From contig NZ_LR593887.1 in NCBI RefSeq assembly GCF_901538355.1, forward strand, positions 992,001 to 1,056,000: a DNA stretch of 64,000 nucleotides, given 5' to 3'. Made by a program: the position numbers and the translations under genes. This document shows positions 1-18,961 of this stretch, piece after piece (within the stretch, counting starts at the first letter, position 1; every line of letters begins with the position of its first letter). A model generated the notes under the pieces. It made no database searches, was not told where the DNA came from, and saw only the letters and a program-made list of their open reading frames with translations. The stretch is from Tuwongella immobilis. GTDB lineage: Bacteria; Planctomycetota; Planctomycetia; Gemmatales; Gemmataceae.

Positions 1-1621
1 TGGTCAGATTCGGTTTATCGCCCAGCGTGACGACGGTGCCATTGCGGAGATCCAAAATGGCGGAGGTGTCGAACGCGGTATTGAGCGCGAGGGTGCCGGT
101 GCCTTCTTTCTGCCACTTGCCGTTGCTCAATTTGGAGGTGACATTCAGCCGCGTCAGCGGGTTGGTGCCGTTGACGGTGACCAATCGCGTGCCGCCGGCG
201 AGGTTGATGGTGCCGTTGAGGATACTCGAGGTGACCGAGGTTCCATCGGCGTTGATGGTGGTATTTCCATCGAGAATCAGCGTTCCGGTGGCGCCGTTGT
301 TGATGCTGCCGGTGCCCATGGTGAGCGTGCTGATGGTGAGCTGCCCGTTGTTGACCAGCGCTTTGCCATCGTTGGTGATGTTGAGCTGGCCGATGGTTTC
401 GGTCTTCCCGTTGATATCCAACGTGCCCAAGAATCCGAGGTTGAGCACCTTGCCATCGGCGATGACATTGGAGTTGATGAGCCGCAGCGTGGGATTGGTG
501 TCGAGATCGCCGCTGATGGAGACAAGATTGTTGACGGCGTTCAATCCGGACGGTGTGGCGAGTTCCAGCACGCCATTGCGCACACTGGTTTGGCCGGTGA
601 AGCTGTTGCCGGTGGGCGATTCCAGTCGCATGGTGCCCGCGCCGGTCTTGCGGAACGACTTGCTGCCGGAAATTTCGCCGGTGACCAACAAATCGGTCGC
701 CGCGGTGCCGTTATCGACCGTTACCACGGTGAACAGCAGATTTCCGAAGGCGAGTTCGGAGCTAATTTTGGAGGATGTCGGCGAGGGGGTGACATTGATG
801 GCGTTGTTGACCACCAGCGTGCCGGCCCCCTGAACGGTGCCGCCGCCGATGCCGTTGCCCAGCGTGAGCGTGTTGGCCGTGAAGGTGCTGTTTCCGGCCA
901 GGCCGATGGTGCCATCGTTGCGAACCAGGGCATTGGTGGCCGAAACGCTGGCATTCACGGTGACCGTGACAAAGCCCGAAGCGGTGCCATTGTCGCCGTC
1001 GCCCACTTGCAGGTTGGCCAGGTTGCCCACTCCCCCATACAAGCTGAGGTGGCCATCGCTCACAAATGTGGTGCCCGTGTAGCTGTTGGCCCCCTGGAAC
1101 CAGACGTCGCCCGCACCGCGGATTTCGATTTGGCCGGACCCGGTGATCGGTGCGGAAATCGTCAGTGTGGTATTCGTGGGAGCGATAATCTGGTGGCCGA
1201 AGCCGGTGAAATTCAGCTTGCTGGCACCGGTAATTTTGTTGCCTGTGGTGAATGCTTCGATGCCCGGCACACCCGCGCCGGAATCCACGGTCAATTGCGT
1301 GTTGAGCGTCAGAATCGTCGTGCTGCCCGGATCAAAGCGAATTTCGTTGACCTTCAAATTGGCAGTCAGGCTATCCACGGTGACATTCGCCGCCGTGTTG
1401 AACACCACCGTCACGGGGTTGCCCGGATCGTTGACGGGGACACCGCCGTTCCAGTTGGCAGCGTTGCTCCACAGCGAATTGCCGCCGCCACCCGTCCACG
1501 TATGCGTTGCCGGAACCACCCGTTCATCCAGCGATTCCAACATCGGGCGAATCGGCCGTGCTGGTGATGCGGTCACTGGGGAGGGGGCCGATTTTCGATT
1601 GCGACGCGAGAGCCAACCCAT
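1..1621 (-). CDS. Autotransporter-associated beta-strand-repeat surface protein (3' end outside window)
   Basis: The minus strand is open from 1621 to the window edge, giving about 540 residues with no stop. The N terminus carries LESLDERVVP (residues 28-37), resembling the LE.LE.R motif found at the N termini of large planctomycete surface proteins. It is followed by TWTGGGGNSLWSNAANW. At least three repeats of the form 'KTGAGTM...NSFTGQTSVRNGVLEL' follow, typical of the PF12951 beta-strand repeat, and the protein is rich in Gly, Asn and Thr. The start at 1621 has GGAG eight bases upstream; the ATG at 1627 is too close to it. Family knowledge suggests a secreted or cell-surface beta-helical protein. 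The C-terminal part and any anchor lie outside the window, so the function is unknown. Confidence 0.85.
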   Translation of the reverse strand, partial: MGWLSRRNRKSAPSPVTASPARPIRPMLESLDERVVPATHTWTGGGGNSLWSNAANWNGGVPVNDPGNPVTVVFNTAANVTVDSLTANLKVNEIRFDPGSTTILTLNTQLTVDSGAGVPGIEAFTTGNKITGASKLNFTGFGHQIIAPTNTTLTISAPITGSGQIEIRGAGDVWFQGANSYTGTTFVSDGHLSLYGGVGNLANLQVGDGDNGTASGFVTVTVNASVSATNALVRNDGTIGLAGNSTFTANTLTLGNGIGGGTVQGAGTLVVNNAINVTPSPTSSKISSELAFGNLLFTVVTVDNGTAATDLLVTGEISGSKSFRKTGAGTMRLESPTGNSFTGQTSVRNGVLELATPSGLNAVNNLVSISGDLDTNPTLRLINSNVIADGKVLNLGFLGTLDINGKTETIGQLNITNDGKALVNNGQLTISTLTMGTGSINNGATGTLILDGNTTINADGTSVTSSILNGTINLAGGTRLVTVNGTNPLTRLNVTSKLSNGKWQKEGTGTLALNTAFDTSAILDLRNGTVVTLGDKPNLT

Positions 1622-1784
1622 GATCATCGCTCCAACTCGAAAGTAAGGATCGTCATGCCACAATCGACTGATGCATTTGACCGGGCAAAGCGAAACACTC
1701 GAAGTCGGAATTTTTTTCCAACTTTGGCCCATGCCCCCGATGGTGTCAACGATTGGAAATTGTAACCCGAATCCATTCAACGCG
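1622..1784. other. Intergenic gap between surface-protein gene and sigma-factor gene
   Basis: This gap lies between two minus-strand genes. On the minus strand a perfect TTGACA (forward 1744-1749) sits about 120 bases upstream of the surface-protein start, but the hexamer 17 bases further on (CAAAGT) is a poor -10, so the promoter is only suggestive. A run of seven T (1711-1717) lies nearby. No terminator hairpin with a proper stem was found. Confidence 0.25.
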
Positions 1785-2390
1785 TTAGAACCAATCATCT
1801 CGCACACCGGATGCCCGTAATTTGGCGCGAAGTCGGCTCAGTTTCACGCGGAGAATATCGGCGTTCTGTCCGAGCATGTCGGCAATTTCCACGGTGCGGT
1901 ATCCCATGGCGGACAGTTCCAACAATTGCCGATCGCTGGCGGGTAATTCGCGGCAGAGCCGTTCGACGGCATCGCGATTGGCGACCGTGTGCGTGGGTTC
2001 GGGGGTGTCATCGCTGAGTGCGAGAATGACTTCCGGGAGATTCGCACCGCTCCCCGCATCGCCGCCAGCGCCATGGCCGCATTCCGGGCGAGATTGCCGT
2101 TGGGCACGTTGCCATTGGCGGGCGGCCTTGCGACGGACGATCGTCAACGCCAGGGCGATCAGTTGTTCCGGGCCGGTGAATTCGAATTTGTTCTGACGAA
2201 GACCCATCAACAGCGAGCGATGCACCGATTGCACCAAATCGATGGTGTCCAGATATGGGCGAAGGGCGGCCCCCAACCGCACGCGGGCGACGGCGCGCAC
2301 TTGCGGTTCGTATTGCCGAGCGATTTCCAGCAGTGCATCCGCATTCCCTTGCCGGGCTTGCACTAAGAGTTCGTCAAAGGGCAAACTCAT
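1785..2390 (-). CDS. ECF-type RNA polymerase sigma factor (planctomycete sigma-70 family)
   Basis: A 201-aa protein with sigma-70 region 2, including DTIDLVQSV at residues 48-56 and a conserved basic stretch IVRRKAARQW. Region 4 is a C-terminal helix-turn-helix (about 145-195; GYRTVEIADMLGQN). There are no other domains, as in ECF factors. It would direct RNA polymerase to a small regulon. The ATG at 2390 has GGAGGG ten bases upstream; an in-frame ATG at 2417 has a weaker site. The gene is transcribed away from the kinase gene at 2587, with 196 bases between starts. ECF factors linked to Ser/Thr kinases are established in Planctomycetes, so the kinase may control this factor; that is inference. 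No anti-sigma factor is visible nearby. Confidence 0.88.
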   Translation of the reverse strand: MSLPFDELLVQARQGNADALLEIARQYEPQVRAVARVRLGAALRPYLDTIDLVQSVHRSLLMGLRQNKFEFTGPEQLIALALTIVRRKAARQWQRAQRQSRPECGHGAGGDAGSGANLPEVILALSDDTPEPTHTVANRDAVERLCRELPASDRQLLELSAMGYRTVEIADMLGQNADILRVKLSRLRAKLRASGVRDDWF

Positions 2391-2481
2391 GGATCGCAAT
2401 CCCTCCCGTGTTGACATCCCGCAGCGAATCCCTGCTGCAGATGCGATGCGATTCGGTGATGCTTTCGGCGTGGCATGGTCG

Positions 2482-2503
2482 GAAAATTTCCCGAAAAATT
2501 TTC
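2482..2503. promoter_or_regulatory. AT-rich inverted repeat in the divergent sigma/kinase promoter region
   Basis: GAAAATTT (2482-2489) and AAATTTTC (2496-2503) form a perfect 8-bp inverted repeat with a 6-bp centre. It lies about midway between the divergent starts at 2390 and 2587. It could be an operator for a regulator acting on both genes. No convincing -35/-10 pair was placed on either strand. Confidence 0.35.
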
Positions 2504-2586
2504 GCCTTGCCTGTTTCGTTTTTCGGTCCTTCTGGCATCATCCAATAGCCGTCCCCTCGCCCGCTATTGCTCGTGGAGATCCAACC

Positions 2587-5500
2587 ATGGAACGTCCGCA
2601 AGTGGATGATCCCATGCAGCAATTTCGCGCTGCCTGCCAACAAGTGGACCGTTGCGTCCGAGCGGGGGAGCCATCCATCCTCGCGGATTGGGTCGCACCC
2701 GGGGCACCACTGCTGGCCGATCTCGATCTGGCCGTCGAACTCGTCTTCACCGAATATGTCACTCGGGAAATGCTCGGCCAAAAGCCCTCTCCCGATGAAT
2801 ACTATAATCGCTTTCCCCACCTGGCGAAAGCATTAGCCCAGTTGTTTCAGGTTGACCAACTTCTCCAGGACTCGCAATCGCTACAACCCGAACACGAACG
2901 CTCCCGGTCAACGCTGCCCGATGGCACCTGGACCGGCTTGCATCGTCCGAATCGGGCCATGCCCACGCACTTGGGCCGCTATCGAATTTTGCAAGAACTC
3001 GGCGCGGGGGGGATGGGCATCGTCTACCACGCCTGGGATGGATTGCTTCGGCGACCGGTGGCCATCAAACTCATCCGCTCGGGAGCCGCCGCCAGCGAAA
3101 GTGATCTCGCCCGCCTTCGACAAGAAGCCGCCGCACTCGCGCGATGTTCCCATTCGCATTTGGTGCAGATTTTTGAAGTCGGCGAATCCGAAGGCCAGCC
3201 GTTTCTGGTGCTGGAATACGTCCCCGGCCCGACCTTGCGGGAACAGTTATCCCAGGGACCGCTCGCGCCCCACGATGCCGCCCATCTGCTGGAACGGCTG
3301 GCGCTGGCGATGGATCACGCGCATTTACGCGGGGTCTTGCACCGCGATTTGAAGCCCGCCAATATCTTGCTCCAGGTGGAATCCAAGGAGTTGCCTCACT
3401 CCCAACAGACGGAACGCCCCACCGAATGGACCGGCCCCTGGACTCCGAAAATCACCGATTTCGGACTCGCCGTATTGCGAACCAGCGATGACCGACTCAC
3501 GGAGACTGGCCACCTCATTGGCACCATCGCCTACATGGCCCCCGAACAGGCCGAAGGACGGCCCGGATGGGTGCAACCCGCCGTCGATTTATACGCGCTG
3601 GGCGTGATCCTCTACGAATGCCTCACGGGGCGCCCGCCGTTCTTGGCCGATTCTCCCGTCGAACTCATGCGCCGCATCAGCCAGGAAGAGGTGCCGGCGA
3701 TTCGGCTGGTGGCCCCGCAGGTTCCCCGAGATTTGCAGGTGATTTGCGAGCGCTGTCTGCGGAAACGGCCCGATCAGCGGTACGAATCTGCCGCCGACTT
3801 AGCTGCCGACTTGCGCCGATTTCTGGAAGGCAAGTCGATCTTGGCGCGACCGCAGCCGATTTGGGAGCGTTCCTGGCGCTGGATTCGCCGCAACCAGACG
3901 CTTTCCGGGCTGAGCATCGTCGGAGTTGTCGCGGTCGTGGGCATGCTGATTGCCTGGGCCCAGTTCACCCATCGGCTGGCATTGGAGCGCGATGCAACAC
4001 GCCAGCAACGCAATCTGGCAATCACCGCGCTGAGCGATGCCCAAACCGCGAATGCCACCGCGCAGGCCGAGCAAGCGCGGGCCGAGCAGTTGCTCCGCGA
4101 TCGGGAAGGAATGCTCTACGCGGCGACGATCACCCGTGCGGCCATGATGGCGACGACGAATCCCATACTGGCGCAATCGCTGTTGCAATCGCCGGAACGC
4201 TGCCCACCACAACAGCGAGACTTCGCTTGGAATTTTCTGCATTCCATGAGTCGATCGCAGTTGGTGCGACCGACGGAGAGTCGCGCTGGGATCAACGCGA
4301 TTGCGCTGGCTCCGATGAGTCGGCGGCTGGTGAGCGTGGATCAGGGCGGGAATATTCTGCTGTGGAATTCCGCCACTGCACAGTTGGAAATGCGTCTGCG
4401 CTCAGTGCATTCGGGGGCTGTCACGGCCGTGGCAATCAGCACCGATGGCCGCTGGTTGGTCACCGGCGGCTCGGATGGCACCGTGGGCACGCTGTCACTG
4501 CCAGAAGGCAAAATTTCCGGAGAAATTCAGCGATTTCCCGGGGAAATCCACGCGCTGGCGATCTCCGCCAACGGGGATGAGATTGCTGCCGCCGCCACCT
4601 CCGCACAAGACAATCGCCAAGGAACCGCACTGCGTCTCTGGCGACGCGATGCACCCCAAACGCAGCGGGAATTCGCGCGTCCTGGCAGTGTGCGGGCCGT
4701 TCAGTTCTCGCCCGATTCGCGGCGATTGCTGGCCGGGTACGCCTCCCACGATGCTCAGGGGCGATTGCTTGGAGAATCCGTCTTGTGGAACATCGCCACC
4801 GGCAAACCGGCGCATGTGCAAGCCTGGCCCGGCTCGCTGGTGCGGGCGATTGGTTTCTCGCCGGATGGCTCGCTGTTTGCCGCCGCGAATGGGGAGATGA
4901 CCGCCCAAATTCGTGACAGTGCCGAGCCGACGATCCGTGTCTGGAAATCGGCGGATTTATCGCAAGTCGCATCGCTGAGTTTGTCGCTGAGTGTGACCCA
5001 ATTGGCCTTTCGTCCCGACGCCCGAACCATTGTCGTGGGTGCCTCGGATTCGTCGCTGACCTGCGTGGATTGGCAATCGGGTGAATCGACGCACCGACTC
5101 CCGCCGCACGAGGCGAAAATCCCCATCAAGCGGGACGCCGATGCCGATGCACCCATGCCCCCATTGCAACCCTATGCCGCACAAGGGCAATCGCTGCGCA
5201 GTGTCTCCGGGTTGGGCTGGGATGTTGAGGGGCGCTGGTTGATGAGTTCAGGAGCAGACGGCACCCTGCGTTGGACGGCGTTGGCGGAGGATCGCCAGGC
5301 ACGGAGCTACACGCTGGCGAATGCGGCCATCTACGGGGCGGATGGCTTCGCCGATGGCTGGGTGTGGACGCATTACAACGCATCCCTGGTGCAGGGAAGT
5401 TCGCAATCGATGCAGCATCGCTCGCATGCCATTGCCGGGCAGGTGAAATTGGTCGCCACCTCGCCGGATCAAAAACGGGTGGCTGTCGCCGTCGATCGGC

Positions 5501-6258
5501 TCAACGATCGCAACGAAATCGGCCGTTGGCTGGTGGTTTCCGAATTGGGCAGCGCTCAACCGCTCTTCGAGGGACCGTTCCCGGCTCGCGATGGCGTCAC
5601 GGGCTTATGCTGGGATCTCGACGGCGAATGGGTGCATGCGCTGCAAGGCCCCGCCTGGGTGAGTTGGAGCCGCGAATCCAAGCGATTCCGGTTTCAACGC
5701 GTGGCGAATCGCACCTTGGGTTCGTTGGCTCGCGGCCCCGAGAATGAGTGCGTGTGGCTGATTCAACCCGCCGGAATCGAACTCCAGCACCTGGGGCAAT
5801 CCGAGCCGAGTTATCGCTGGGCACCCCCCGAAGGACGGATCATTCGCCATAGCGTTAGTGCAGATGGGCGAACGCTGCTGCTGACCGTGCATCGTGACCC
5901 GCGCGTGCGGATGATGCTCTATCGAATTGTCTGGGGCGAGACGCCGAGCGTGACAATTCTTCCCGTGGAACTTGAAGCGCGGAGCGTGCTGACCATCAGC
6001 CCCGATGCCCGAAACCTCGCCGTGACGCACCCGACCCGACGTGAGATTGCCATTTGGCACCTGGCGACGCTGCAAGAGTTATTCCGCGTGCACGCTCCAT
6101 TGGGCATTTACCGCTTGCATTTCAGCGGCGACAACCGCCACCTCGCCGCCTTCGCCCGCTCCGGAAACCGCCGAGAAACCCTCTTCACCACCTGGGGCAC
6201 CATCCCGCTCCACACCCACTTCGCCATCCCCACACCCCCCAACCCAACGCCGAAATAA
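2587..6258 (+). CDS. Membrane Ser/Thr protein kinase with C-terminal WD40 repeats
   Basis: A 1223-aa protein. Residues 1-125 form a helical region with an EYYNRFPHLA motif, common before planctomycete kinases. The kinase domain runs about 129-408: glycine loop ELGAGGMGIVY, VAIK lysine near 160, catalytic HRDLKPANILL near 251, DFG near 292 and MAPEQAEG near 317, so it looks active. About 20 residues are inserted between NILL and DFG. A transmembrane helix (about 438-460, GLSIVGVVAVVGMLIAW) is followed by a short coiled coil (about 480-505) and degenerate WD40 repeats to the end, probably a propeller. The kinase should be cytoplasmic and the propeller on the far side of the membrane. The start is set by GGAG at 2575, eight bases before ATG. 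It is divergent from the sigma-factor gene, a likely signalling partner. Confidence 0.92.
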   Translation: MERPQVDDPMQQFRAACQQVDRCVRAGEPSILADWVAPGAPLLADLDLAVELVFTEYVTREMLGQKPSPDEYYNRFPHLAKALAQLFQVDQLLQDSQSLQPEHERSRSTLPDGTWTGLHRPNRAMPTHLGRYRILQELGAGGMGIVYHAWDGLLRRPVAIKLIRSGAAASESDLARLRQEAAALARCSHSHLVQIFEVGESEGQPFLVLEYVPGPTLREQLSQGPLAPHDAAHLLERLALAMDHAHLRGVLHRDLKPANILLQVESKELPHSQQTERPTEWTGPWTPKITDFGLAVLRTSDDRLTETGHLIGTIAYMAPEQAEGRPGWVQPAVDLYALGVILYECLTGRPPFLADSPVELMRRISQEEVPAIRLVAPQVPRDLQVICERCLRKRPDQRYESAADLAADLRRFLEGKSILARPQPIWERSWRWIRRNQTLSGLSIVGVVAVVGMLIAWAQFTHRLALERDATRQQRNLAITALSDAQTANATAQAEQARAEQLLRDREGMLYAATITRAAMMATTNPILAQSLLQSPERCPPQQRDFAWNFLHSMSRSQLVRPTESRAGINAIALAPMSRRLVSVDQGGNILLWNSATAQLEMRLRSVHSGAVTAVAISTDGRWLVTGGSDGTVGTLSLPEGKISGEIQRFPGEIHALAISANGDEIAAAATSAQDNRQGTALRLWRRDAPQTQREFARPGSVRAVQFSPDSRRLLAGYASHDAQGRLLGESVLWNIATGKPAHVQAWPGSLVRAIGFSPDGSLFAAANGEMTAQIRDSAEPTIRVWKSADLSQVASLSLSLSVTQLAFRPDARTIVVGASDSSLTCVDWQSGESTHRLPPHEAKIPIKRDADADAPMPPLQPYAAQGQSLRSVSGLGWDVEGRWLMSSGADGTLRWTALAEDRQARSYTLANAAIYGADGFADGWVWTHYNASLVQGSSQSMQHRSHAIAGQVKLVATSPDQKRVAVAVDRLNDRNEIGRWLVVSELGSAQPLFEGPFPARDGVTGLCWDLDGEWVHALQGPAWVSWSRESKRFRFQRVANRTLGSLARGPENECVWLIQPAGIELQHLGQSEPSYRWAPPEGRIIRHSVSADGRTLLLTVHRDPRVRMMLYRIVWGETPSVTILPVELEARSVLTISPDARNLAVTHPTRREIAIWHLATLQELFRVHAPLGIYRLHFSGDNRHLAAFARSGNRRETLFTTWGTIPLHTHFAIPTPPNPTPK

Positions 6259-6294
6259 CGGCAAGTCTTCACCGCGAACCGTCGGCAAGTCTTC
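6259..6294 (+). repeat. Two 12-bp direct repeats upstream of the KAP gene
   Basis: CGGCAAGTCTTC occurs at 6259-6270 and again at 6283-6294, 24 bases apart (about two helical turns). The repeats follow the kinase stop and precede the KAP NTPase gene. They may be binding sites for a regulator; nothing further can be shown. Confidence 0.45.
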
Positions 6295-6349
6295 GCCGAT
6301 TTTCCGACGATCGAATATCGCATTTCGACATCCATTCCATGTAAGATAC

Positions 6350-6367
6350 GTGTCGATGTTCCGACAC
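6350..6367 (+). promoter_or_regulatory. Short palindrome upstream of KAP NTPase gene
   Basis: GTGTCG (6350-6355) and CGACAC (6362-6367) form a 6-bp inverted repeat with a 6-bp spacer, 40 bases before the KAP start. A TAAGAT (6342-6347) just upstream could be a weak -10, without a clear -35. This is operator-like but weakly supported. Confidence 0.25.
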
Positions 6368-6407
6368 CCGTCCGGAACGCGTCGCTCTGTCGCCGTGGAA
6401 TCGACCG

Positions 6408-9152
6408 ATGAACGAACCGAATGCCCCTACGCCCGCTCCCGACAACGATCGCAAGAAGAACTGGTACGATTGGCTATTCAACATCTCGACGAAGCAGTGG
6501 CTTCTCTGGGGTGTCAACCTCGTGATTGCGATCGTCGCTGGGATGCTGTTGATTCCGTGGGCGAGGGTGTTTCCCGAAGACTTCCATCGCTTCGTGGTTG
6601 AGAAAGATAGTGTGGTGCGCTGGACGATTCGGTTCGGCGTTGGCTTGGGCGTGACATGGCTCCTCTTTCGGTTCTTCTCGGTGAAAGTCACCCAGATTGG
6701 CAGCTTGATCTGGCTCAAGTTTCCCCCCTTATGGCTCGCGTGGTGTTTCGCACTGGCGTTCTTGTGGGGATACGATTTGACTTACGGATTGGGGCCGCGG
6801 GGGGGCGAAATGGACTTCTGGGAATGGGCCGCGGAGGGATTCCCCCGCGATTCCGAGAAGGCCACATACCAGGCCTCGTGGGAGGATTGGTTGGTCGTGG
6901 CGTTGCTTCCGGTGGGGTTGTTTTTTGCAGGACAATACTTGTTCCCGAAAAATCCTGAGGAAGCCGAATCTGATTTGCTGCCAATCCAGCTGCCGATCGA
7001 TGAGCTGCTCAAGGACTGGGATCGTGTTGAATCCTGGCTCAAATCGGAAGACCCCGCTCAGTATGACATTCTCGGTTATGTGCGGATCGCAGATCGGATG
7101 GCCGAACGGATGCTAAACGATCATGGCACATTCGGCTTGATTGGTGATTACGGGAGCGGGAAAACGACGCTGATTCAGTGGACGAAAGCCAAGGTACGGG
7201 AGAAGCAGAAAAACCAGAAATCGTCGCCGAAAATTTGGTTTGTGAAACAGAGTTGCTGGGGGTTCGAGGATTCCTCGACGGCGATTCATCAGCTCTTGTC
7301 GGCAGCGGTCGATGAGATTGGGAAACACGTCGATTGCTTCTCGTTTCGGTTCCTGCCCGAATCGTATCGCAAAACCTTTTCCGGCGGCGACGATTGGGTG
7401 CATTCCATTTTGGACATGGTGCTGGGTTGCACCGACCCGATTGAACAATTTCACCACTTGAAAGCGATTCTGGAGTGTGCCCACGCTCGGGTGATCTTCA
7501 TCATCGAAGACTTGGACCGCAACGACAGCGACCGATTCGATCGCCAAGACATCCTCGCCCTGCTGCAACGCCTCCGCGAATTCAAGAAACAATTCTCATT
7601 CGTGCTGGCAACCGGCAAAGAGCGATCCAACGATATCGATTTCGCAAAACTCTGCGATCATTTCCAACTGCTCCCGGAGTTGACGAAAGAGCAAATGGGG
7701 AAATTGATTTCTCGGGTCCGTCGGCAGTGTTTGGATGAGTATAAAGTTATTTCTCCAGAGAATGAGAAGACATGTTGGTATCTTGATCCATCTGATTTGA
7801 AATCACATGAATTGGATTTTTTAACCCCAGTATCTAGGCTAATTCGGACACCAAGAGTGTTAAAACGGGCTCTTCGCCACGCGTATCATGCATGGGAGCA
7901 CCTCCATGGTGAAGTATCGTTGGATGTGCTTCTTGCGGTGAACATGATACGATACGGAGTCCCTGATCTATTTGATTTTTTACTTCGATTTCATTCCGAG
8001 CTATTATCTGACGAAGCAGAACGAACTTTTATGAAACTATCTGATGTTGAGATGTTTCCCAGATTAAAGCTGCCATGGGAGGACCTGACTCAAAGAAATG
8101 GGGCGATGTTACCGAATCTAATTGAAATGTTGAGTGTCATAATGCCAAGCTCGATTAAGAATTTAGGAGTTGAGCAATCTGGATGGCGTAGTATTCCCCA
8201 GGGAATCGAATCTTCAAAATATTGGATGCGAATTGTGAATGAGTTTGTTGAAGGAGAACAAATCAAAGATGAGGATTTTCTAAGGGATTTTGGTGATTGG
8301 ATTGATAATCCAAAAGATGAGATGATGTTCGTTGATCGATTGCAATCTAGTCAACAGTATTATTCTCTCTTTCAATATTTTTCAAAGTGGATCTTCAGAA
8401 ATCGTGAAGATTGCATATTTGAGTTGTTTGCTCAGGTGATTGTGCGATATCGTCAAGAGGTTGAGGATCAGATCACTAACAATACTATAGTGAGCAAAAA
8501 AATATTCCCATCTAGGGTTATTGACGATCTTGCAAGATTGATCGAGCAATCGGAGCTTTCTGGAAATAAGATTGAAGAATTTTATACCAAACAATTACAA
8601 CTTGCAGCAAAAATACAGATTGATCTCGTAAATCAGCTGTACCACTATGTCTTGAGGTTGCCGGTAAATAGAATTAACCCGGATTTTAAGCCGATGGTAA
8701 CACAGAAAAGTGCTGAATTCATGCATGATGGATTCAAAACTAGCAAAGAACCGTATCAACTGTTTTATACAAGTCATCATAATTCGCTGTATGACCTCAT
8801 CCGTCTTGGTAAAGATAAAGATCTAGATTGGTCCTGGATTGGTTTGTATTTGATTAGGTGTCTCCAATCAAAACAAATGCCTATAGTTGGCCGGATTGTT
8901 ATGATGAATGTATTTAATCTGATTATAAGAAGATTTCCTGATGGAAGTCTAGCGGTTGATGAAGTCGATTTGTCCTGTCTCAAAAAATACTTTCCTGGTA
9001 ATGAATCCAAACTTCTGGATCTTATTGATCTGAGTGTCCTTGGATATAGTTCCCAACTAGCAAACACCATCCAAAAGGGAATCAATGCGGCCCGTTCGGA
9101 GTTGGCAAAAAAATCTGGCGATAATTCTCCACAGCCCCCCACCGGCTCCTGA
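6408..9152 (+). CDS. KAP family P-loop NTPase with four transmembrane helices
   Basis: A 914-aa protein. Four hydrophobic helices lie at about 30-52, 71-93, 97-125 and 162-181. A KAP-type P-loop domain follows: Walker A GDYGSGKTT near 246 and Walker B RVIFIIEDLDR near 361, followed by a sensor-like VLATGKE. Membrane helices in or near a P-loop domain are characteristic of the KAP family, whose best-known bacterial member, PifA of the F plasmid, blocks phage T7. The C-terminal 470 residues match nothing I recognise. Base composition changes abruptly near 7739 (residue about 444): upstream codons are GC-rich like the neighbours, while downstream to about 9120 they are AT-rich. No partner gene is adjacent. 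Defence is plausible but unproven. Confidence 0.85.
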   Translation: MNEPNAPTPAPDNDRKKNWYDWLFNISTKQWLLWGVNLVIAIVAGMLLIPWARVFPEDFHRFVVEKDSVVRWTIRFGVGLGVTWLLFRFFSVKVTQIGSLIWLKFPPLWLAWCFALAFLWGYDLTYGLGPRGGEMDFWEWAAEGFPRDSEKATYQASWEDWLVVALLPVGLFFAGQYLFPKNPEEAESDLLPIQLPIDELLKDWDRVESWLKSEDPAQYDILGYVRIADRMAERMLNDHGTFGLIGDYGSGKTTLIQWTKAKVREKQKNQKSSPKIWFVKQSCWGFEDSSTAIHQLLSAAVDEIGKHVDCFSFRFLPESYRKTFSGGDDWVHSILDMVLGCTDPIEQFHHLKAILECAHARVIFIIEDLDRNDSDRFDRQDILALLQRLREFKKQFSFVLATGKERSNDIDFAKLCDHFQLLPELTKEQMGKLISRVRRQCLDEYKVISPENEKTCWYLDPSDLKSHELDFLTPVSRLIRTPRVLKRALRHAYHAWEHLHGEVSLDVLLAVNMIRYGVPDLFDFLLRFHSELLSDEAERTFMKLSDVEMFPRLKLPWEDLTQRNGAMLPNLIEMLSVIMPSSIKNLGVEQSGWRSIPQGIESSKYWMRIVNEFVEGEQIKDEDFLRDFGDWIDNPKDEMMFVDRLQSSQQYYSLFQYFSKWIFRNREDCIFELFAQVIVRYRQEVEDQITNNTIVSKKIFPSRVIDDLARLIEQSELSGNKIEEFYTKQLQLAAKIQIDLVNQLYHYVLRLPVNRINPDFKPMVTQKSAEFMHDGFKTSKEPYQLFYTSHHNSLYDLIRLGKDKDLDWSWIGLYLIRCLQSKQMPIVGRIVMMNVFNLIIRRFPDGSLAVDEVDLSCLKKYFPGNESKLLDLIDLSVLGYSSQLANTIQKGINAARSELAKKSGDNSPQPPTGS

Positions 9153-9181
9153 AAACCGCGTGTGGATGTCGGGGGGGCACT

Positions 9182-9191
9182 TACAATTGTA
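9182..9191 (+). promoter_or_regulatory. TACAATTGTA palindrome upstream of acid phosphatase gene
   Basis: A perfect 10-bp palindrome contains TACAAT (9182-9187), a good -10 hexamer on both strands, about 50 bases before the start at 9237. The matching -35 is poor, so it is a candidate promoter or operator only. Confidence 0.25.
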
Positions 9192-9236
9192 GTGGTGGCG
9201 TGCTGCGGAGTGGTTTGCAATCGGGGAGGGGGCGTG

Positions 9237-10169
9237 ATGCGGCGGAATTTGCAGGCGATGGGGTGGATGACGGTGTCGGTGGCGGCGTTTTTTCTGGGGC
9301 GGACGGTGCAGCCGCTGGCTCCGGCAGTTGGGCAGCCGCTAACGCTGCCAGTGCAGCCGCTGAATCCGGCAGTGGGGCAGCCGCTGAATCCTGCATTGCA
9401 ACCGTTGACACCAGCGGGGCAGGCACTGACGCCGGCGGGGCAGGTGGGGGCCAATTTCTACATGCAAACCGCGGCGGAATATCGAGCGTGCTGCCTGCAA
9501 ACGTATCGGCTGGCGACGGAGAAACTCGACGCTGCCCGGAAGGCGGATGATGGCAGTGGCAAACCGATGGCCATTGTCATGGATCTCGATGAAACGGTCG
9601 TCGATAACGGGGCGTTTCAAAGCTATTTGCTCGCTAATGGCAAGGGATATGCCCAGGCCGATTGGGATCGGTATGAGCAGTTTCGTCCGCAGGATGTCGC
9701 CTGGGTGCCCGGTGCCAAGGCGTTTATCGCGGCGGCGGAGGCGAAGGGGTTCACGATGATTTATCTGAGCAATCGCCAAGAGAAATTCATCGATGGAACC
9801 GTGGCGGCGCTGAAGCATTTGGGAATGGCCGAGGCGGGGTTGAAGGAGCGATTGTTTCTTTCCACCACGACCAGCAATAAAGAACCGCGTCGAATGGCGA
9901 TTCGGGAGAAATATCAGGTCAAAATGCTGTTTGGCGATAATCTACGGGATTTCTCGGAGGATTATCGGGCGAATGTTGCGATGCCACGCAGTGTGGACGA
10001 CAATCGCAAGGTGATGCAAGCGCGGAAAGCCCAGGTGGATGCTGACGCAACGCATCTGGGTGTGGATTGGTGGATTTTGCCGAATCCGGCGTATGGCGAA
10101 TGGGAGAAATTGGGCACGCCGAATGTGTTGCCGTTGCTCCACCCGGCCACGAAATTGAGCATGCCGTAA
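9237..10169 (+). CDS. HAD-superfamily acid phosphatase (class IIIB, lipoprotein e(P4)-like)
   Basis: A 310-aa protein with an N-terminal signal or anchor (MGWMTVSVAAFFLGRTV). A proline-rich tandem repeat of QPL.PAVG units spans about residues 24-67. The catalytic HAD domain has DLDETVVDNG near 115 (nucleophile and acid/base Asp of DxDxT), LSNR near 177 and GDNLRDFSED near 236. This matches the acid phosphatase class B family (PF03767), which removes phosphate from external organic phosphates. The catalytic domain should be outside the cytoplasmic membrane. The start at 9237 follows GGGGAGGGGG, four bases away; an upstream ATG-like start would lack a site and a signal peptide. There is no lipobox, unlike true e(P4). 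The repeat linker is unusual. Confidence 0.85.
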   Translation: MRRNLQAMGWMTVSVAAFFLGRTVQPLAPAVGQPLTLPVQPLNPAVGQPLNPALQPLTPAGQALTPAGQVGANFYMQTAAEYRACCLQTYRLATEKLDAARKADDGSGKPMAIVMDLDETVVDNGAFQSYLLANGKGYAQADWDRYEQFRPQDVAWVPGAKAFIAAAEAKGFTMIYLSNRQEKFIDGTVAALKHLGMAEAGLKERLFLSTTTSNKEPRRMAIREKYQVKMLFGDNLRDFSEDYRANVAMPRSVDDNRKVMQARKAQVDADATHLGVDWWILPNPAYGEWEKLGTPNVLPLLHPATKLSMP

Positions 10170-10191
10170 TCGCTGGCCCAGGAATGCCGGG

Positions 10192-11367
10192 TTAGCCACG
10201 GGTGGAGCGCGGCGAATCCGGCTTGGACGACGATTGGCCGAATCGCATGCCGGGATTCGCGGGTCGGTCTTGCCGGGGATCGACCGCAGATTCGGCAGGG
10301 AGTTGCGACGCGGCGACGCGATCGGGGACGAGTCGGCCCATGGTGCGCCAAATCAGCACGCCGAATCCCAGCAGCACAATTGCCCCGGAGCAGCGAAATC
10401 CCCAGCGGCGCAGGCTTGTTTCGGAATCCGCGTTCGATGCGGTGGTCGAATGGCCGCCAAACCAGTCCCAAGACGATTCTGCTCCGACGCGGAATTTCAC
10501 GGCCGAGCGGAAATCCTCGACCAAACAGCCGGGGGTGAATTGCCACTGGGGCGGTGTGGCGCTGGGACCGTGGGCGAAGCGGGTGCATTCCGCGTGGATC
10601 TCTTCTTCGAAGCGCACCCCCAGATTGTCCCCATCAATGACAAATCGCGTGAGCAGCATTTCGTTGGCCATCCAACCACCGCTGGGAGTCGGCTGAAACT
10701 CTTCGGCGAGCAGTTGTTCGAGAATCTGCCATTGCTCGGAGCCTCGGAAGCGAATGTCGATCGACCGCATCAGAATGATGTCCGGATGGGCGCGATCCAT
10801 GATGATGCGATGGCGAATCTCGTATCGTTCGCACAGCGCGATCGGCGGGCTATGCCAAATCGTGCCCTGCGGGAATTGCGGGTCGGTGGCCCCGAGTTGT
10901 GCGACCAACGTGGGCAGCACCGTGGTAATGGCGTTGCGTTCGCTGCGAAACCAAAATTCATGGGGCGAAATGCCGAAATCGAACAATGCGGGGGATTGAG
11001 CCATGCAGCCACACAGCGGTTCGTTGGGCTTCGGGGCGGCGGCGTGGGGATGCCATTGGGTCTCTTCCCGATACACCTGCCCATCAAACCAGGCGCGTGT
11101 GGAGTGCTGCGGGTTGGACTGGGGGGCGGAGAAATCGGTGACGTGCCGTTCCATCCACAGGGATTCGCCGGCGACTTGGAAGCGTGTTTTCCAGCATTCG
11201 CGTGGGCGGAGTTTTCGGGATTTCAAATCTCGGCGCAGGACTTCGAGCTGAAATTCTGCGCAGAAACAGTCACTCGGTGCGATTCCCAATCGCGGTCGGT
11301 TGTCGACAATCGGCATTTGGTCGAACAACGGCACCAACACCAACATGGGAACCCATAGCGAGAGCAT
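10192..11367 (-). CDS. Hypothetical protein with N-terminal signal and C-terminal membrane helix
   Basis: A 391-aa protein I do not recognise. An N-terminal hydrophobic segment (MLSLWVPMLVLVPLF) looks like a signal sequence. A long region rich in aromatic residues follows, then one transmembrane helix near residues 320-345 (CSGAIVLLGFGVLIWRTMG) and a basic/proline tail, so the tail is probably cytoplasmic and the bulk external. The start at 11367 has AGGAG seven bases upstream. The gene converges with the acid phosphatase gene, with stops 22 bases apart, and is divergent from the gene at 11685. No catalytic motif was found. Confidence 0.75.
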   Translation of the reverse strand: MLSLWVPMLVLVPLFDQMPIVDNRPRLGIAPSDCFCAEFQLEVLRRDLKSRKLRPRECWKTRFQVAGESLWMERHVTDFSAPQSNPQHSTRAWFDGQVYREETQWHPHAAAPKPNEPLCGCMAQSPALFDFGISPHEFWFRSERNAITTVLPTLVAQLGATDPQFPQGTIWHSPPIALCERYEIRHRIIMDRAHPDIILMRSIDIRFRGSEQWQILEQLLAEEFQPTPSGGWMANEMLLTRFVIDGDNLGVRFEEEIHAECTRFAHGPSATPPQWQFTPGCLVEDFRSAVKFRVGAESSWDWFGGHSTTASNADSETSLRRWGFRCSGAIVLLGFGVLIWRTMGRLVPDRVAASQLPAESAVDPRQDRPANPGMRFGQSSSKPDSPRSTRG

Positions 11368-11684
11368 GGGGATTCTCCTTCGCAGGGCGTGCATCCAAAC
11401 ATGCCACCACATCAATCACACGAAACAGGCGATATCGAAGACAGTTGATCTGATAAGTGAAAATTGATTGATGTATTCGAGCTTGATGGCATTATCCCTT
11501 GTTCAAGGCAATTGTCAATAGGGTATTCGATCCGAGGGAAAATTTAGCGATGGAGAAGCGATTTCGGTTCGGGCTTGCAATCCTCGCGGGAATCCGGGAA
11601 TGCCCGCGAAATTCCGCTCGCCATTGCCCGCGATTTGCGGTAGCCTGAACCCCGAATCTGCGGGTGCGGCAGGGAGTCGTCGCG
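11368..11684. other. Divergent intergenic region, 317 bases
   Basis: This gap holds the upstream regions of the genes starting at 11367 (minus) and 11685 (plus). It contains an AT-richer core (about 11440-11530) likely to hold promoters, but no hexamer pair with good spacing was found. The last part is GC-rich with repeated GCCCGCGA words (11600-11632). No ORF or hairpin of note. Confidence 0.4.
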
Positions 11685-12203
11685 ATGAGTGAATCGAGTT
11701 CCGGGAATTCGGCGGTCATTTGGGTGGCGTTGATTGGGGCGCTGGGCAGCGTTGCCGCTGCGCTCATTGGCCTCATGCCCTGGCTGCTCAGCAAGCCAGA
11801 GCCAAGCCCGGCAACTGCGAACGTGGCACCGACAACCGCCGCGAAAGCGACGCCGAATCTGACCGGGCCGGGTGGGGTGCCACCCATGGAAAAGAAAGCC
11901 AAGCCGGTCAAGCCGCCGGTGGATGTCTCGTTCCGTCGAGCGGCGGTTCCGACCCGTGGTGTGGTGATTCAACTCGCCAACACGGCCGCGCGGGAGCCGC
12001 TGGAAAAAGTCGTGGTCACCATCCAGCGCCCCGGGGAAAAATCCGATCGTGTCTTTCGAGCCGAAAAGCCGATTCGCCCCAACGAATCCATCAGCGTCGG
12101 CTGGCTGGAACTGGGGAATTTCGCTCCCAAAAAGGGGGACACCGTGCGGGTGCGTGCGGAAGGCTACCCCGTGGATTGGGAAGAAGTCATCAACGTGAAT
12201 TGA
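11685..12203 (+). CDS. Small membrane-anchored protein of unknown function
   Basis: A 172-aa protein with one N-terminal transmembrane helix (about residues 10-37, VIWVALIGALGSVAAALIGLMPWLL). A Pro/Ala/Thr-rich linker leads to a C-terminal domain of about 100 residues that looks beta-rich (GVVIQLANTAAREPLEKVVVTIQRPG). The C-terminal half may be an Ig-like or fibronectin-like fold. The start at 11685 has AGGGAG eight bases upstream. It ends 16 bases before the DUF58 gene and is probably in the same operon. Function unknown. Confidence 0.75.
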   Translation: MSESSSGNSAVIWVALIGALGSVAAALIGLMPWLLSKPEPSPATANVAPTTAAKATPNLTGPGGVPPMEKKAKPVKPPVDVSFRRAAVPTRGVVIQLANTAAREPLEKVVVTIQRPGEKSDRVFRAEKPIRPNESISVGWLELGNFAPKKGDTVRVRAEGYPVDWEEVINVN

Positions 12204-12219
12204 TGCCATCGGAGCCGCG

Positions 12220-13170
12220 ATGATTTCTCCGCAGGATGTTCAGCGGCTGCGTCGGTTGCAATGGCGGGTCCGCAAACTCATTCGCGGCTTGCTCGAAGGG
12301 GCGTATCGCAGTACCTTTCCCGGCACCGGCCTCATCTTCGAGGAATTGCGGGCTTACACTCCTGGCGACGACATTCGCAACATGGATTGGAATGTTACTG
12401 CCAGGTTGGGTGAACCCTACATTCGGCGGTATGTGGATGAACGCGAACGCACGCTGATTTTGGCCGTGGACCGCTCGGCAAGTCTCGATTTTGGCACGCA
12501 CCTCGACCCCGAATCCGGGGAGATTCTCACCAAGCGACAAATTCTGGCCGAATCGGCGGCGATGCTGGCGATGTTGGCCGAAACCAACCGCGACCGCATT
12601 GGCCTGCGCATGGCCGATGCGACCATTCATTGCGATCGTTCGCCGAGTCGGGGGGGGCCGCATATGATGCGACTGCTCGCCGATTTGCTCAACCGCGAGA
12701 CACCTTCCGATCGTCGCTCGATGCCGAGAACCGAACCGATGCCGAAATCGATTCCGTCGGCTGGCCCCTCGCCGCTGCGGATCTTGCTGCAATCGCTGCT
12801 GAATACCCCCCGTCGGCGGGCGGTGGTGCTGCTGATGTCGGACTTCGTCGATTCGGATTTCGCCGATCTGTTTCGGCTGGTTGCGCGAAAGCATGAGCTG
12901 GTGGCGGTGACGGTGGATGACCCCCGCGAGCGGGCGTTGCCGTCGGTCGGCTGGGTGCGCTTGCGGGATGCCGAGACGGGAGCGGTTGCCCTGGTGGAAA
13001 CCCACGCGCCGGCGGTGCGGGCGGCGATGGCGCAAGCCGTTGCCAATCGGTGGGATGCGTGCGATTCGCTGATTCGTGGCAGTGGCGCAACGCGGCTGCA
13101 TTTGGCGACCGATCAGCCGCCCTTGGATGCGCTCATTCGCTGGCTCCAGCAGCGAGGCGGGAATCGATGA
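12220..13170 (+). CDS. DUF58 domain-containing protein (vWA-like fold)
   Basis: A 316-aa protein matching DUF58 (PF01882). The typical N-terminal signature is GTGLIFEELRAYTPGDDIR..DWNVTARLGEPYIRRYVDERE (residues about 36-80). A MIDAS-like loop VDRSASLDFG follows at about 84-93. DUF58 proteins usually act with MoxR-type AAA ATPases and BatABD-like proteins at the membrane, often in envelope or stress functions. Here only a BatD-like gene follows, overlapping by four bases (ATGA at 13167-13170), so the two are translationally coupled. No moxR gene is in the window, which is unusual for this cluster type. Confidence 0.92.
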   Translation: MISPQDVQRLRRLQWRVRKLIRGLLEGAYRSTFPGTGLIFEELRAYTPGDDIRNMDWNVTARLGEPYIRRYVDERERTLILAVDRSASLDFGTHLDPESGEILTKRQILAESAAMLAMLAETNRDRIGLRMADATIHCDRSPSRGGPHMMRLLADLLNRETPSDRRSMPRTEPMPKSIPSAGPSPLRILLQSLLNTPRRRAVVLLMSDFVDSDFADLFRLVARKHELVAVTVDDPRERALPSVGWVRLRDAETGAVALVETHAPAVRAAMAQAVANRWDACDSLIRGSGATRLHLATDQPPLDALIRWLQQRGGNR

Positions 13171-14243
13171 CCGGCCACGCTCGGTTCCGATGGGCGAAAT
13201 CCGTGTTGTGGGCGGGCATTCTTGCGACTCTGCTGGCGATGACCGGCCGCGCTCAACCGCCGCAATCCCCGCCGACTTCCGCCACCTCCAATACGCCAAC
13301 CGAACGCAGCGAACCGCTGTCGATTCCCGCTGTGCAAGAGCGGCGACTTGGCCCGGTGGATGTGCGATTGGAGATCAGTCGCACGCGGTTGACGCTTTCG
13401 GAATTCGCCGAGGTACAAATCATCGTCGAAGGCCCAAGTCCGGTGACGATTCAACCGGAGCCGCTGCCGCTGCGAGCGCGAAGCATTCCGTTTTGGTCGT
13501 TGACACCGTTGGCACCGGATCGTCGGGAGCCGTTGCCGAATGAGCGAGAACGGATCATCCGTCGCTTGCGCTTGGAGCCGTTCGAGGTGGGCGATCTGCT
13601 GCTGGAATGGACTCCGTTGCGCATTCGTTCGGGGCGACTTGGCCAAGAAGCGATTGCGGATTTTCGTCGGCTGGTGATTCCGGTGAGTAGTGCGCTGGCC
13701 GAGCCAAACATCGATCTGTTGCGGCCGATGATCGCGCCGCCGCCATTGCCGCCGATGCCGGAAGTGGTGACTCCCCGCTGGCCGCAATCACTGCTGATGG
13801 CGGTGCTGCTCGTTGGCGTGCTGGTGATGGCGTGGCCCCGATTGCGGCGACGCTGGCGCGAATCGCGGGAGCGGCCGCTGCCCTGGGCAGTGCGGTTGCA
13901 TCGGAATGCGTTGGCGATCGATCCGCAATGGAATCAGTCGGAATGTTGGAATCAAGTCGCGGCGTTGCATCAGGCATGGTGGCGTGCGATGGCGGGGGAT
14001 GCGGCGGCGAGTTGGGGATTGCCCGAACGTCTGGCGTGGCTTGAAGATCGGGCAGATTGGCCAGCGGAGCAGCGTGACCATTGGCGACAATTGGAGGCCG
14101 AGTGGGAACACCTCCGCTATCAGCCCGAAACCCCACATCGGCAACAGGTTGCAGAAACATGGTGGATGGCGTGGATTGGCGAGTTGGCGCGATTGGCGCA
14201 GATTGGAGGATTGGGCGAAACTGGGGGAAATGCAAAGAATTGA
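13167..14243 (+). CDS. BatD-like/DUF4381-like membrane protein
   Basis: A 358-aa protein with an N-terminal signal peptide (SVLWAGILATLLAMTGRAQ). A beta-rich external region (LGPVDVRLEISRTRLTLSE..., about 50-190) is of the kind seen in BatD. A transmembrane helix lies near 208-228 (SLLMAVLLVGVLVMAWP), and a cytoplasmic, Trp-rich helical tail follows. The start codon overlaps the stop of the DUF58 gene as ATGA, which fixes the start and implies coupled translation. The family assignment rests on architecture and position rather than on a specific motif. Confidence 0.75.
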   Translation: MTGHARFRWAKSVLWAGILATLLAMTGRAQPPQSPPTSATSNTPTERSEPLSIPAVQERRLGPVDVRLEISRTRLTLSEFAEVQIIVEGPSPVTIQPEPLPLRARSIPFWSLTPLAPDRREPLPNERERIIRRLRLEPFEVGDLLLEWTPLRIRSGRLGQEAIADFRRLVIPVSSALAEPNIDLLRPMIAPPPLPPMPEVVTPRWPQSLLMAVLLVGVLVMAWPRLRRRWRESRERPLPWAVRLHRNALAIDPQWNQSECWNQVAALHQAWWRAMAGDAAASWGLPERLAWLEDRADWPAEQRDHWRQLEAEWEHLRYQPETPHRQQVAETWWMAWIGELARLAQIGGLGETGGNAKN

Positions 14244-14428
14244 GAAATCAGCTAAAGTGGGTTGACGATTCTGGCCGATCCTTCCTGCAACGAGTGGACG
14301 ACCATGTTGTGATTCGGGGTCGTTTATTCGCTCCTTCCGACACTCGATTTGCTCTCCGACGAGTCCATCTGGCTGGATTGCTGCCGTTGGCCGGGGTGAC
14401 TTGTCTGACATTCGCAGGAGATCGCACC

Positions 14429-14890
14429 ATGATGCGCTGGTTTCCCATGACGATGTTGATGATGCTCACTCTGACCGCCGCCTGGGGATGCTCCCGCCAG
14501 TCGGATCGCCCCGATGTGACCGGCGAAGCCCTTCGCAAACTCGAAAATCGCAATCAACGGCTAGAAAGCGACATGCAAGCCGCCGGTGCCCAACTCGCGA
14601 TTTTGCAGCAACAATTGCTCGACGCCGAAACCACCAAGAAACAATTGCAAGGCGAAGTGAGCCGACTGTTGCAAGCGACTCGGGAACGCGACGATGCCCG
14701 CACGCAATTGGCCGATGCCGCCGTGCAGTTGAAAATCCGCACCAGCGAACGCGATGCGCTGCAATCGCAATTCGAGAATTTCCGCAAAGCCCTCCGCACG
14801 CAATTGGAACAGGCAGATGTGCTGTTGAAGCCCGAAACCCGTCCTGCCCCGGCAGCAACCACCTCCGCGCCATCCGCACGGCAAACGTGA
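14429..14890 (+). CDS. Coiled-coil lipoprotein
   Basis: A 153-aa protein. The N terminus MMRWFPMTMLMMLTLTAAWGC ends in a plausible though imperfect lipobox (AWGC, Cys 21). Residues 30-130 form one long heptad-rich coiled coil (KLENRNQRLESDMQAAGAQ...). An Ala/Pro/Thr tail follows. It is probably an envelope lipoprotein with an oligomeric stalk. The start at 14429 has AGGAG eight bases upstream. It follows the DUF58/BatD-like pair by 185 bases and may be separately transcribed; a TTGACG at 14262-14267 lacks a good -10. Function unknown. Confidence 0.8.
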   Translation: MMRWFPMTMLMMLTLTAAWGCSRQSDRPDVTGEALRKLENRNQRLESDMQAAGAQLAILQQQLLDAETTKKQLQGEVSRLLQATRERDDARTQLADAAVQLKIRTSERDALQSQFENFRKALRTQLEQADVLLKPETRPAPAATTSAPSARQT

Positions 14891-14995
14891 GCATTCCTCT
14901 GGGATTCCACCGCGTTCCGTTGGGATGAATCGGCAACCGTCTCTGCCAACTGCGAATCGTTACGAGTCCGAGTCCGCCAAGCGATCACAACCCTT

Positions 14996-15028
14996 CTCGC
15001 ATGACTACTCACGCCTCCCGCATGCGAG
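14996..15028. promoter_or_regulatory. Inverted repeat upstream of the TIM-barrel gene
   Basis: CTCGCATG (14996-15003) and CATGCGAG (15021-15028) are perfect inverted repeats separated by 17 bases. A TACAAT -10-like hexamer follows at 15055-15060, 42 bases before the start at 15102, without a good -35. This may be a terminator for the lipoprotein gene or an operator. Confidence 0.35.
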
Positions 15029-15101
15029 GGACGCCGATTCGGTCGAGCTGCTGCTACAATAGATGCAGATGGCTCCCGTGTCTTGGGAAGGATCAATTGG
15101 T

Positions 15102-15890
15102 ATGAATGGATTGCAGATTGGGATTCGTGCGGAATCGACCGGGCTGCCCCTGCGACGAGCTTTCGCGGAGGCGGCCCGTGCTGGCGCTTCGGGGATCGAA
15201 GTCGAAGCCGTGGGCGACATCCTCCCCACGCGATTGAGCGAAACCGGTCGCCGTGAGTTTCGGCATCTCTTGCGAAGTTACAATCTTTCTCTCACCGCGC
15301 TGAATTGTCCCTTGCGGGGCACCATCGATGAACCCACGGGGTTGGATACCCGCATTGCGTACATTCAATCGGTGATGACTTTGGCCTACGATCTCGGCAC
15401 GCGCGTCGTGATTATCGAAAATGGCAAACTCCCTGCCGATCCGCAATCGCCACGGGCGCAACTGCTTGCGGAATCGCTGCGTGGGCTGGCCGCGCACGGC
15501 GATCGGACCGGCGTGACGCTGGCGCTCGAAACCGGGCTGGATGGCGGCGATGTGCTCGCGACATTTCTCGAGAAATTCGACACGGGCAGTCTGGGAGTGA
15601 ATTTCGATACCGGCAACATGCTCATCAACGGATTCCACCCCATCGATCATTTGCTTCCATTGCGGAAATATCTGGTGCATCTGCATGCCCGTGATATTCG
15701 GCAGGGGAGCATGAACCGGCTGGCGGCGGAGGTGTCTTTGGGAGCGGGCAGTATCGATTGGCTGAATTTACTTGCGACGCTTAGTGTTATTGAGTACACT
15801 GGTTATGTCGTCGTGGACCGCGAGCAGGGGGAGAACCGGCTGGCGGATCTGCTGGCAGGGGTCGCATTTTTGAAACGGATTTCGGGGTAG
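15102..15890 (+). CDS. Sugar phosphate isomerase/epimerase family TIM-barrel protein
   Basis: A 262-aa protein with the xylose isomerase-like TIM-barrel pattern (PF01261). It has GIEVEAVGD near 30-40, VVIIENGKLP in the middle, a metal-site type ALETG strand, NFDTGNMLI, and HLHARDIR near 190-200. These carry the Glu, Asp and His residues that usually bind a divalent metal. The substrate cannot be told. The start at 15102 follows AAGGA by nine bases. It ends four bases before the next gene at 15895, so the two are probably cotranscribed. Confidence 0.85.
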   Translation: MNGLQIGIRAESTGLPLRRAFAEAARAGASGIEVEAVGDILPTRLSETGRREFRHLLRSYNLSLTALNCPLRGTIDEPTGLDTRIAYIQSVMTLAYDLGTRVVIIENGKLPADPQSPRAQLLAESLRGLAAHGDRTGVTLALETGLDGGDVLATFLEKFDTGSLGVNFDTGNMLINGFHPIDHLLPLRKYLVHLHARDIRQGSMNRLAAEVSLGAGSIDWLNLLATLSVIEYTGYVVVDREQGENRLADLLAGVAFLKRISG

Positions 15891-15894
15891 GCCG

Positions 15895-16419
15895 ATGCTT
15901 CAGCGGGTGATTTCGGGTGGCCAAACGGGAGCCGATCAAGCCGGGGTGCGAGTCGCGGCGCGCTTTGGCTATGCAACCGGCGGGTGGATGCCTCGTGGAT
16001 TCATCACCCTGGATGGGCCGAATCCGGAATTTGCTGCCGAGTATCACCTTCAGGAACACCCGGAGGGCTACGCCGCTCGAACCTGGGCGAATGTGCGGGA
16101 TTCGGATGCCACGATTCGGCTCGCGGGGACATTCGCTTCATCGGGCGAGAAATGCACGCTGCGGGCGATTCGGCATTATGGTCGGCCGCACTTTGATGTG
16201 CTGAAATCAGATCCACCCGCGCCGGATGCCGTCGTCGATTGGCTCTTGGCGCACGAGGTGCGGGTGTTGAATATCGCGGGGAATGCCGAGCGAATTAGCC
16301 CACTGGCCAAAGCGCACGGCATTACCGAGTTTGTCACCGAGTATTTGACGCAAGTGCTGACCCGATACGAGCAACGGCTTGCGACATACCTGCTGGCGGA
16401 ATCTCCGCCGGCGGCTTAG
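15895..16419 (+). CDS. YpsA-like putative molybdenum carrier protein
   Basis: A 174-aa protein beginning RVISGGQTGADQAGVRVA, the Rossmann-type nucleotide-binding signature of the cpYpsA/molybdenum carrier family (PF12694, SLOG superfamily). GWMPRGF, NVRDSDATIRLAG and SGEKCTLRAI follow. SLOG proteins bind nucleotide derivatives; the molybdenum-carrier label comes from a distant structural match, and the physiological ligand is uncertain. The gene lies four bases after the TIM-barrel gene. Its stop overlaps the stop of the convergent ndk gene by four bases (16416-16419). Confidence 0.85.
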   Translation: MLQRVISGGQTGADQAGVRVAARFGYATGGWMPRGFITLDGPNPEFAAEYHLQEHPEGYAARTWANVRDSDATIRLAGTFASSGEKCTLRAIRHYGRPHFDVLKSDPPAPDAVVDWLLAHEVRVLNIAGNAERISPLAKAHGITEFVTEYLTQVLTRYEQRLATYLLAESPPAA

Positions 16420-16862: not shown

Positions 16863-16877
16863 GGCGTGCAAATCCCC

Positions 16878-16906
16878 AGAATAGCAATCGCATCAATCGG
16901 TCCGAA
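16878..16906 (-). promoter_or_regulatory. Candidate ndk promoter
   Basis: On the minus strand TTCGGA (forward 16901-16906) and TATTCT (forward 16878-16883) are 17 bases apart, the ideal spacing. They lie just upstream of the ndk start and would give a very short leader. The -35 matches the consensus at only three of six positions. Confidence 0.3.
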
Positions 16907-17088
16907 CTCTTATCGTGCGACCCAACCCCGGATTCGTCCAGTCCCCCGAAGCGGGAAGTTGCATTCCGGTGGGCGAAAGATCCCGGAACGCAGTCGCATC
17001 GGCTAGCCAATCGGCGGGAAAACTCCTATTGTGGCGAAGATGCCCAGTTCGATCGACGGGAGCGATCGCCCCCGATGAGGATGCCGGA

Positions 17089-18939: not shown

Positions 18940-18961
18940 TTTCGCCGCAACTGCCGATCCA

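What the first reader, a model, noticed from the sequence alone, without database searches (positions are those of the whole stretch)
6408..9152. KAP NTPase with a sharp composition break at its middle
The gene is GC-rich and host-like up to about 7738, then AT-rich with runs of AT-ending codons to about 9120, then GC-rich again. The break falls after the NTPase domain, so the C-terminal effector/sensor half may have been exchanged by recombination. KAP proteins include PifA, a phage-exclusion protein, and rapid swapping of specificity domains is typical of immune genes.
Basis: partly seen in the sequence, partly recalled or inferred. Interest (0 to 1): 0.62.

Follow-up and report, generated by a model that had tools for sequence, protein, structure and literature searches.

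The report
Two-part mosaic membrane NTPase gene
A planctomycete gene for a membrane-anchored NTPase of a family sometimes found in phage-defence gene clusters has a front half written in the host's own codon style and a back half written in a foreign, AT-rich style, most likely because the back half was swapped in from a distant relative.

Summary
In the 914-codon gene at 6408-9152, third-position GC drops from 0.69 to 0.36 at codon ~440 (7728). It is the strongest break among 690 ORFs sampled from 1.26 Mb of the same genome, far beyond shuffled codons. The N-half matches host codon usage; the C-half is more atypical than all 540 comparison windows. No homologue shows such a break. Both halves belong to one co-linear, patchily distributed planctomycete family: N-terminal membrane helices, KAP-type P-loop NTPase, all-helical C-terminal half. 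The C-half was therefore not fused from an unrelated protein; if exchanged, it came from a distant member of the family. Relative to the rest of the tree, this protein's branch is more than twice as long in the C-half as in the N-half, though topologies do not significantly conflict and no donor was found. The defence reading gains indirect support: homologues sit inside a DISARM/Druantia-like operon, directly behind drmMI in a second genome, and near BREX. The window's own neighbours look ordinary. Best explanation: within-family replacement of the C-terminal (putative sensor) half by DNA from an AT-rich source. It is a new member of a known kind; function, donor and selective reason are inferred.

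The parts
6408..9152 (+). 914-aa membrane-anchored KAP-type P-loop NTPase, the only PF07693 match in this genome
6408..7007 (+). N-terminal hydrophobic helices (residues 1-200), before the NTPase domain
   Evidence: hydropathy peaks 31-49 and 161-179; long helices 15-54, 68-90, 108-126, 158-178 in the low-confidence model
7116..7622 (+). KAP_NTPase domain, residues 237-405, with Walker A GDYGSGKT (246-253) and Walker B VIFIIEDLDR (362-371)
   Evidence: Pfam PF07693 36.4 bits, cut-off 20; motifs; sequence
7728..7740 (+). composition break point, codons 440-444
   Evidence: GC3 change point, gain 52
7728..9132 (+). AT-rich half (GC3 0.35), all-helical C-terminal region, inferred replaced tract
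   Evidence: right edge uncertain (9063-9132)

Best explanation
The gene encodes a membrane-anchored P-loop NTPase. Its N-terminal helices fix it in the membrane, the NTPase acts as an ATP-driven switch, and the helical C-terminal half probably recognises a partner or trigger. I think the gene is a recombination mosaic. Homologous (or homeologous) recombination with a distant gene of the same family from an AT-rich genome replaced codons ~440 to ~900, with the left junction just after the NTPase core and the right one within the last 30 codons. A deletion-fusion between two tandem family members would leave nearly the same product. The shared core would have been kept while recognition changed. 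Shown: the break, its rank in the genome, common family membership of both halves, excess divergence of the C-half. Inferred: the exchange event, the sensor role and the anti-phage role.
For: Sharp GC3 step, strongest of 690 ORFs. Host-like codon usage in the N-half, outside the whole null in the C-half. No equivalent step in any homologue. C-half homologous to the family's C-half throughout, with family-wide residues kept in it (T481 P482 R483, W496, G501 E502). This protein's end branch relative to the rest of the tree: N 0.112 (0.087-0.149), C 0.249 (0.208-0.309), while L015, L026 and L005 stay level; the excess is also seen in the well-conserved block 470-560 (0.22). Sparse distribution (16 of 397 Planctomycetia genomes at E<=0.001, several of these weak) fits horizontal transfer. 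Homologues in or by defence genes.
Against: No donor found in plasmids, phages, viral contigs or sampled genomes. Topology not in significant conflict: L015 is nearest in both trees, weakly. Some other homologues also change relative branch length between halves (L003, L012). Alignment uncertainty beyond residue 560 could inflate the C branch. No border repeats that look like a junction. Neighbours in the window are not recognisable defence genes by eye.
Confidence: 0.66

Rival explanations
1. The whole gene was acquired from an AT-rich source and the N-terminal half was later replaced by a host-like relative; the AT-rich half is the original and the host-like half the newcomer.
For: In several genomes the family gene has lower GC3 than most of its neighbours (for example 0.47 beside 0.57-0.69 in L105, 0.58 beside 0.72-0.76 for the large genes of L102), so an AT-rich gene may be the family norm and the host-like N-half the odd part. 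The N-half is closest to L015, a homologue from the same bacterial family.
Against: No second KAP gene remains in the genome to act as source. The C-half is the part with excess divergence.
Confidence: 0.18
2. No exchange: the C-half evolves faster under relaxed or diversifying selection, and local mutation bias or relaxed codon selection made it AT-rich.
For: Trees do not conflict significantly. The C-terminal half is the faster part in all pairs of the core family compared, and a few homologues show a mild GC3 fall (0.63 to 0.50 in L004).
Against: The step is abrupt and affects all classes of synonymous sites. No other sampled gene has one as strong. No homologue approaches it.
Confidence: 0.13
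3. Assembly or sequencing artefact joining two DNAs.
For: No reads were available to check.
Against: The genome is one contig of 6.69 Mb; the join keeps frame and family homology on both sides.
Confidence: 0.03

Closest known systems
KAP P-loop NTPases (Pfam PF07693)
   Same: NTPase core matches above the curated cut-off (36.4 vs 20 bits), Walker A and B present
   Different: Membrane helices lie before the NTPase domain, with none between Walker A and Walker B, whereas the title of the founding paper describes segments inserted within it (title as cited in PMC11846954; the paper itself was not held)
PifA (F plasmid phage exclusion)
   Same: Weak match over part of the NTPase core (E 1.8e-9, best stretch residues 218-306)
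   Different: No detected similarity to the C-terminal half
Tmn anti-phage KAP NTPase (PMC11846954)
   Same: KAP family NTPase with membrane segments, described as a defence system
   Different: Described with two unusual transmembrane domains; no Tmn model was among the PADLOC matches at E<=1
QatA
   Same: Weak similarity at the NTPase core (16.7 bits)
   Different: Far below the family cut-off of 600 bits; qatBCD were not searched for specifically
STAND-type immune NTPases (Avs, NLR-like)
   Same: Works-like analogy: N-terminal output part, central NTPase, helical C-terminal part; weak NACHT score (22.4 bits)
   Different: Below the NACHT cut-off of 26.7; no recognised repeat family in the C-half

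Membership tests
KAP_NTPase (PF07693) | Profile match over the curated cut-off | tested here: met
   36.4 bits against 20, residues 237-405
KAP_NTPase (PF07693) | Walker A and acidic Walker B motifs | tested here: met
   Walker A at 246, Walker B at 362
[quoted passage not shown]
   Hydropathy peaks at 31-49 and 161-179 only, none between 246 and 371; so not filed in that subgroup
PifA | Similarity along the whole protein | tested here: not met
   Best stretch is profile 15-102 of 720
QatA | NCBIfam equivalog score of 600 bits | tested here: not met
   16.7 bits
Tmn | Match to a Tmn profile | tested here: inconclusive
   No Tmn model listed at E<=1 in PADLOC 2.0.0; whether that release holds such a model was not verified
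Anti-phage defence gene | Protects cells against phage | not testable with these tools
   Only indirect: homologues in DISARM/Druantia-like and BREX loci
Recombinant (mosaic) gene | Two halves with different composition | tested here: met
Recombinant (mosaic) gene | Significantly different phylogenetic placement of the halves | tested here: inconclusive
   Topologies compatible, relative branch lengths differ

The most novel reading that the evidence does not exclude
This family of membrane-anchored NTPases is a modular phage-sensing device whose helical C-terminal half is exchanged between lineages at a fixed joint after the NTPase core. It acts alone in some genomes and as an interchangeable accessory of DISARM/Druantia-like operons in others.
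Probability: 0.15. Interest if true: 0.65.

Novelty: new member of a known kind. Interest (0 to 1): 0.4.

Why it matters
It is a clear natural case of a gene whose two halves appear to have different histories, with the joint at the border between the ATP switch and a putative recognition region. If the family is a defence NTPase, the joint marks where specificity may be exchanged. The link to DISARM/Druantia-like operons suggests a role for a poorly characterised planctomycete family.

Tried and rejected
Second copy or remnant of the C-half in the same genome: none. Donors in plasmids, phages and viral contigs: only two distant plasmid matches over the NTPase and adjoining region. Two pattern-based genome-collection scans: none, then five loci. 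Solved structures by sequence: none. Fold search on a low-confidence model (pLDDT 62.7, pTM 0.39): ORC/AAA+, STAND and RdrA chains at low TM-scores, not used as evidence. Border repeats: none convincing. Fusion to an unrelated domain rejected, because the C-half is a family C-half. A literature search on fragment-wise exchange gave nothing specific.

Full report
Observation. The ORF at 6408-9152 encodes 914 residues without interruption. Local GC falls from 0.52-0.59 to about 0.36 and returns to above 0.6 past 9150. At third codon positions the fall is a step at codon 440-444, from 0.69 to 0.36, with a log-likelihood gain of 52; 5000 shuffles of the same codons reached at most 12.6. I sampled 1.26 Mb of the same genome (6.69 Mb, one contig): among 690 ORFs of 200 codons or more this gene has the strongest break, the 99th percentile being 16, and the genome's median GC3 is 0.664. 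The N-half is therefore host-like and the C-half is the anomaly: its codon usage lies below all 540 host windows of 440 codons (z -4.3), while the N-half is average (z 0.3). All classes of synonymous sites change. A transition of up to about 80 codons cannot be told from a step. The species is not stated; size and kinship suggest a Gemmataceae planctomycete, perhaps Tuwongella, which is an inference from memory.

What the protein is. Residues 237-405 match KAP_NTPase (36.4 bits, cut-off 20), with Walker A at 246 and Walker B at 362. Hydrophobic helices lie before the NTPase domain and none lies between the Walker motifs, so the inserted-membrane-segment feature of the classical transmembrane KAP proteins is not met. 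The C-terminal half is predicted to be almost entirely helical (model confidence low, mean pLDDT 62.7). It is the only PF07693 match in this genome.

Homologues. Full-length, co-linear homologues with 27-33% identity were found in a few planctomycetes: none among 58 near relatives by single-sequence search, and 16 of 397 genomes of the class by profile, several of these weak. None has a comparable break; the largest gain is 8.4. The C-half belongs to the family: a profile of eight homologues' C-halves, built without this protein, finds it at E = 3e-61.

Different histories? NTPase-part identity to the core homologues is 35-47%, C-half 18-23%; the ratio (1.7-2.2) exceeds that of most other pairs (1.1-1.9). 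On a fixed topology the protein's end branch relative to the rest of the tree is 0.112 (0.087-0.149) in the N-half and 0.249 (0.208-0.309) in the C-half, by column bootstrap, while L015, L026 and L005 stay level; L003 and L012 also shift, so rate differences are not unique to this gene. Free trees place it nearest L015 in both halves, weakly. The data show excess divergence and foreign composition of the C-half but not a topological conflict. I read this as replacement by a distant, unsampled member of the family.

Context and function. The window's neighbours are a kinase with repeats upstream and a phosphatase-like gene downstream (identified by eye); no defence system is evident near them, and PADLOC was not run on them. 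Homologues elsewhere do point to defence. In G424 (L102) the gene sits in a run of genes: DrmD-like helicase, DrmMI-like methylase, small ORFs, this NTPase, DruE-like helicase, with a McrBC gene nearby. In L018 it starts three bases after the last sense codon... that is, directly behind, a DrmMI-like gene (917-5983, then 5986). In L019 BrxA and BrxC genes lie within 7 kb. In G225 a partial homologue lies about 6 kb from a DruE-like gene. In G108 the same drmD-drmMI-druE order holds a different ATP-binding protein in the slot. Other homologues stand alone or beside mobile-element genes. Association with defence genes is thus recurrent but not universal, and its enrichment over chance was not measured.

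Mechanism. By analogy with central-NTPase immune proteins, the membrane part would be the output, the NTPase the switch and the helical half the recogniser. This is inference. The joint after the NTPase core is where an exchange would alter recognition while keeping the switch.

Verdict. Observation confirmed; exchange within the family likely (0.66); defence role plausible but untested; nothing categorically new.

Noticed in passing
L102 (G424) 71-16418; L018 48-8673; L120 (G108) 3806-19386: Planctomycete DISARM/Druantia-like operons (DrmD-like, DrmMI-like, DruE-like) with a slot between methylase and DruE that holds the KAP-type NTPase in G424 and a different ATP-binding (OLD-like by eye) protein in G108; in L018 the NTPase follows DrmMI and the contig ends.
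   Followed up: partly
L106 8506-11245 (G159): A second family member is cut short and followed directly by a transposase-like ORF, apparently an insertion in the C-terminal half.
   Followed up: no
L053 4941-7052: Second strongest GC3 break in the genome sample (0.35 to 0.87 at codon 63); may be a wrong start.
   Followed up: no
L052, L090, L081, L099: Clusters of AT-rich or atypical-codon genes in the same genome, candidate acquired islands.
   Followed up: no
window 9299-9388: Two 45-bp tandem units (82% alike) encoding a proline-rich repeat near the start of the downstream phosphatase-like gene.
   Followed up: no
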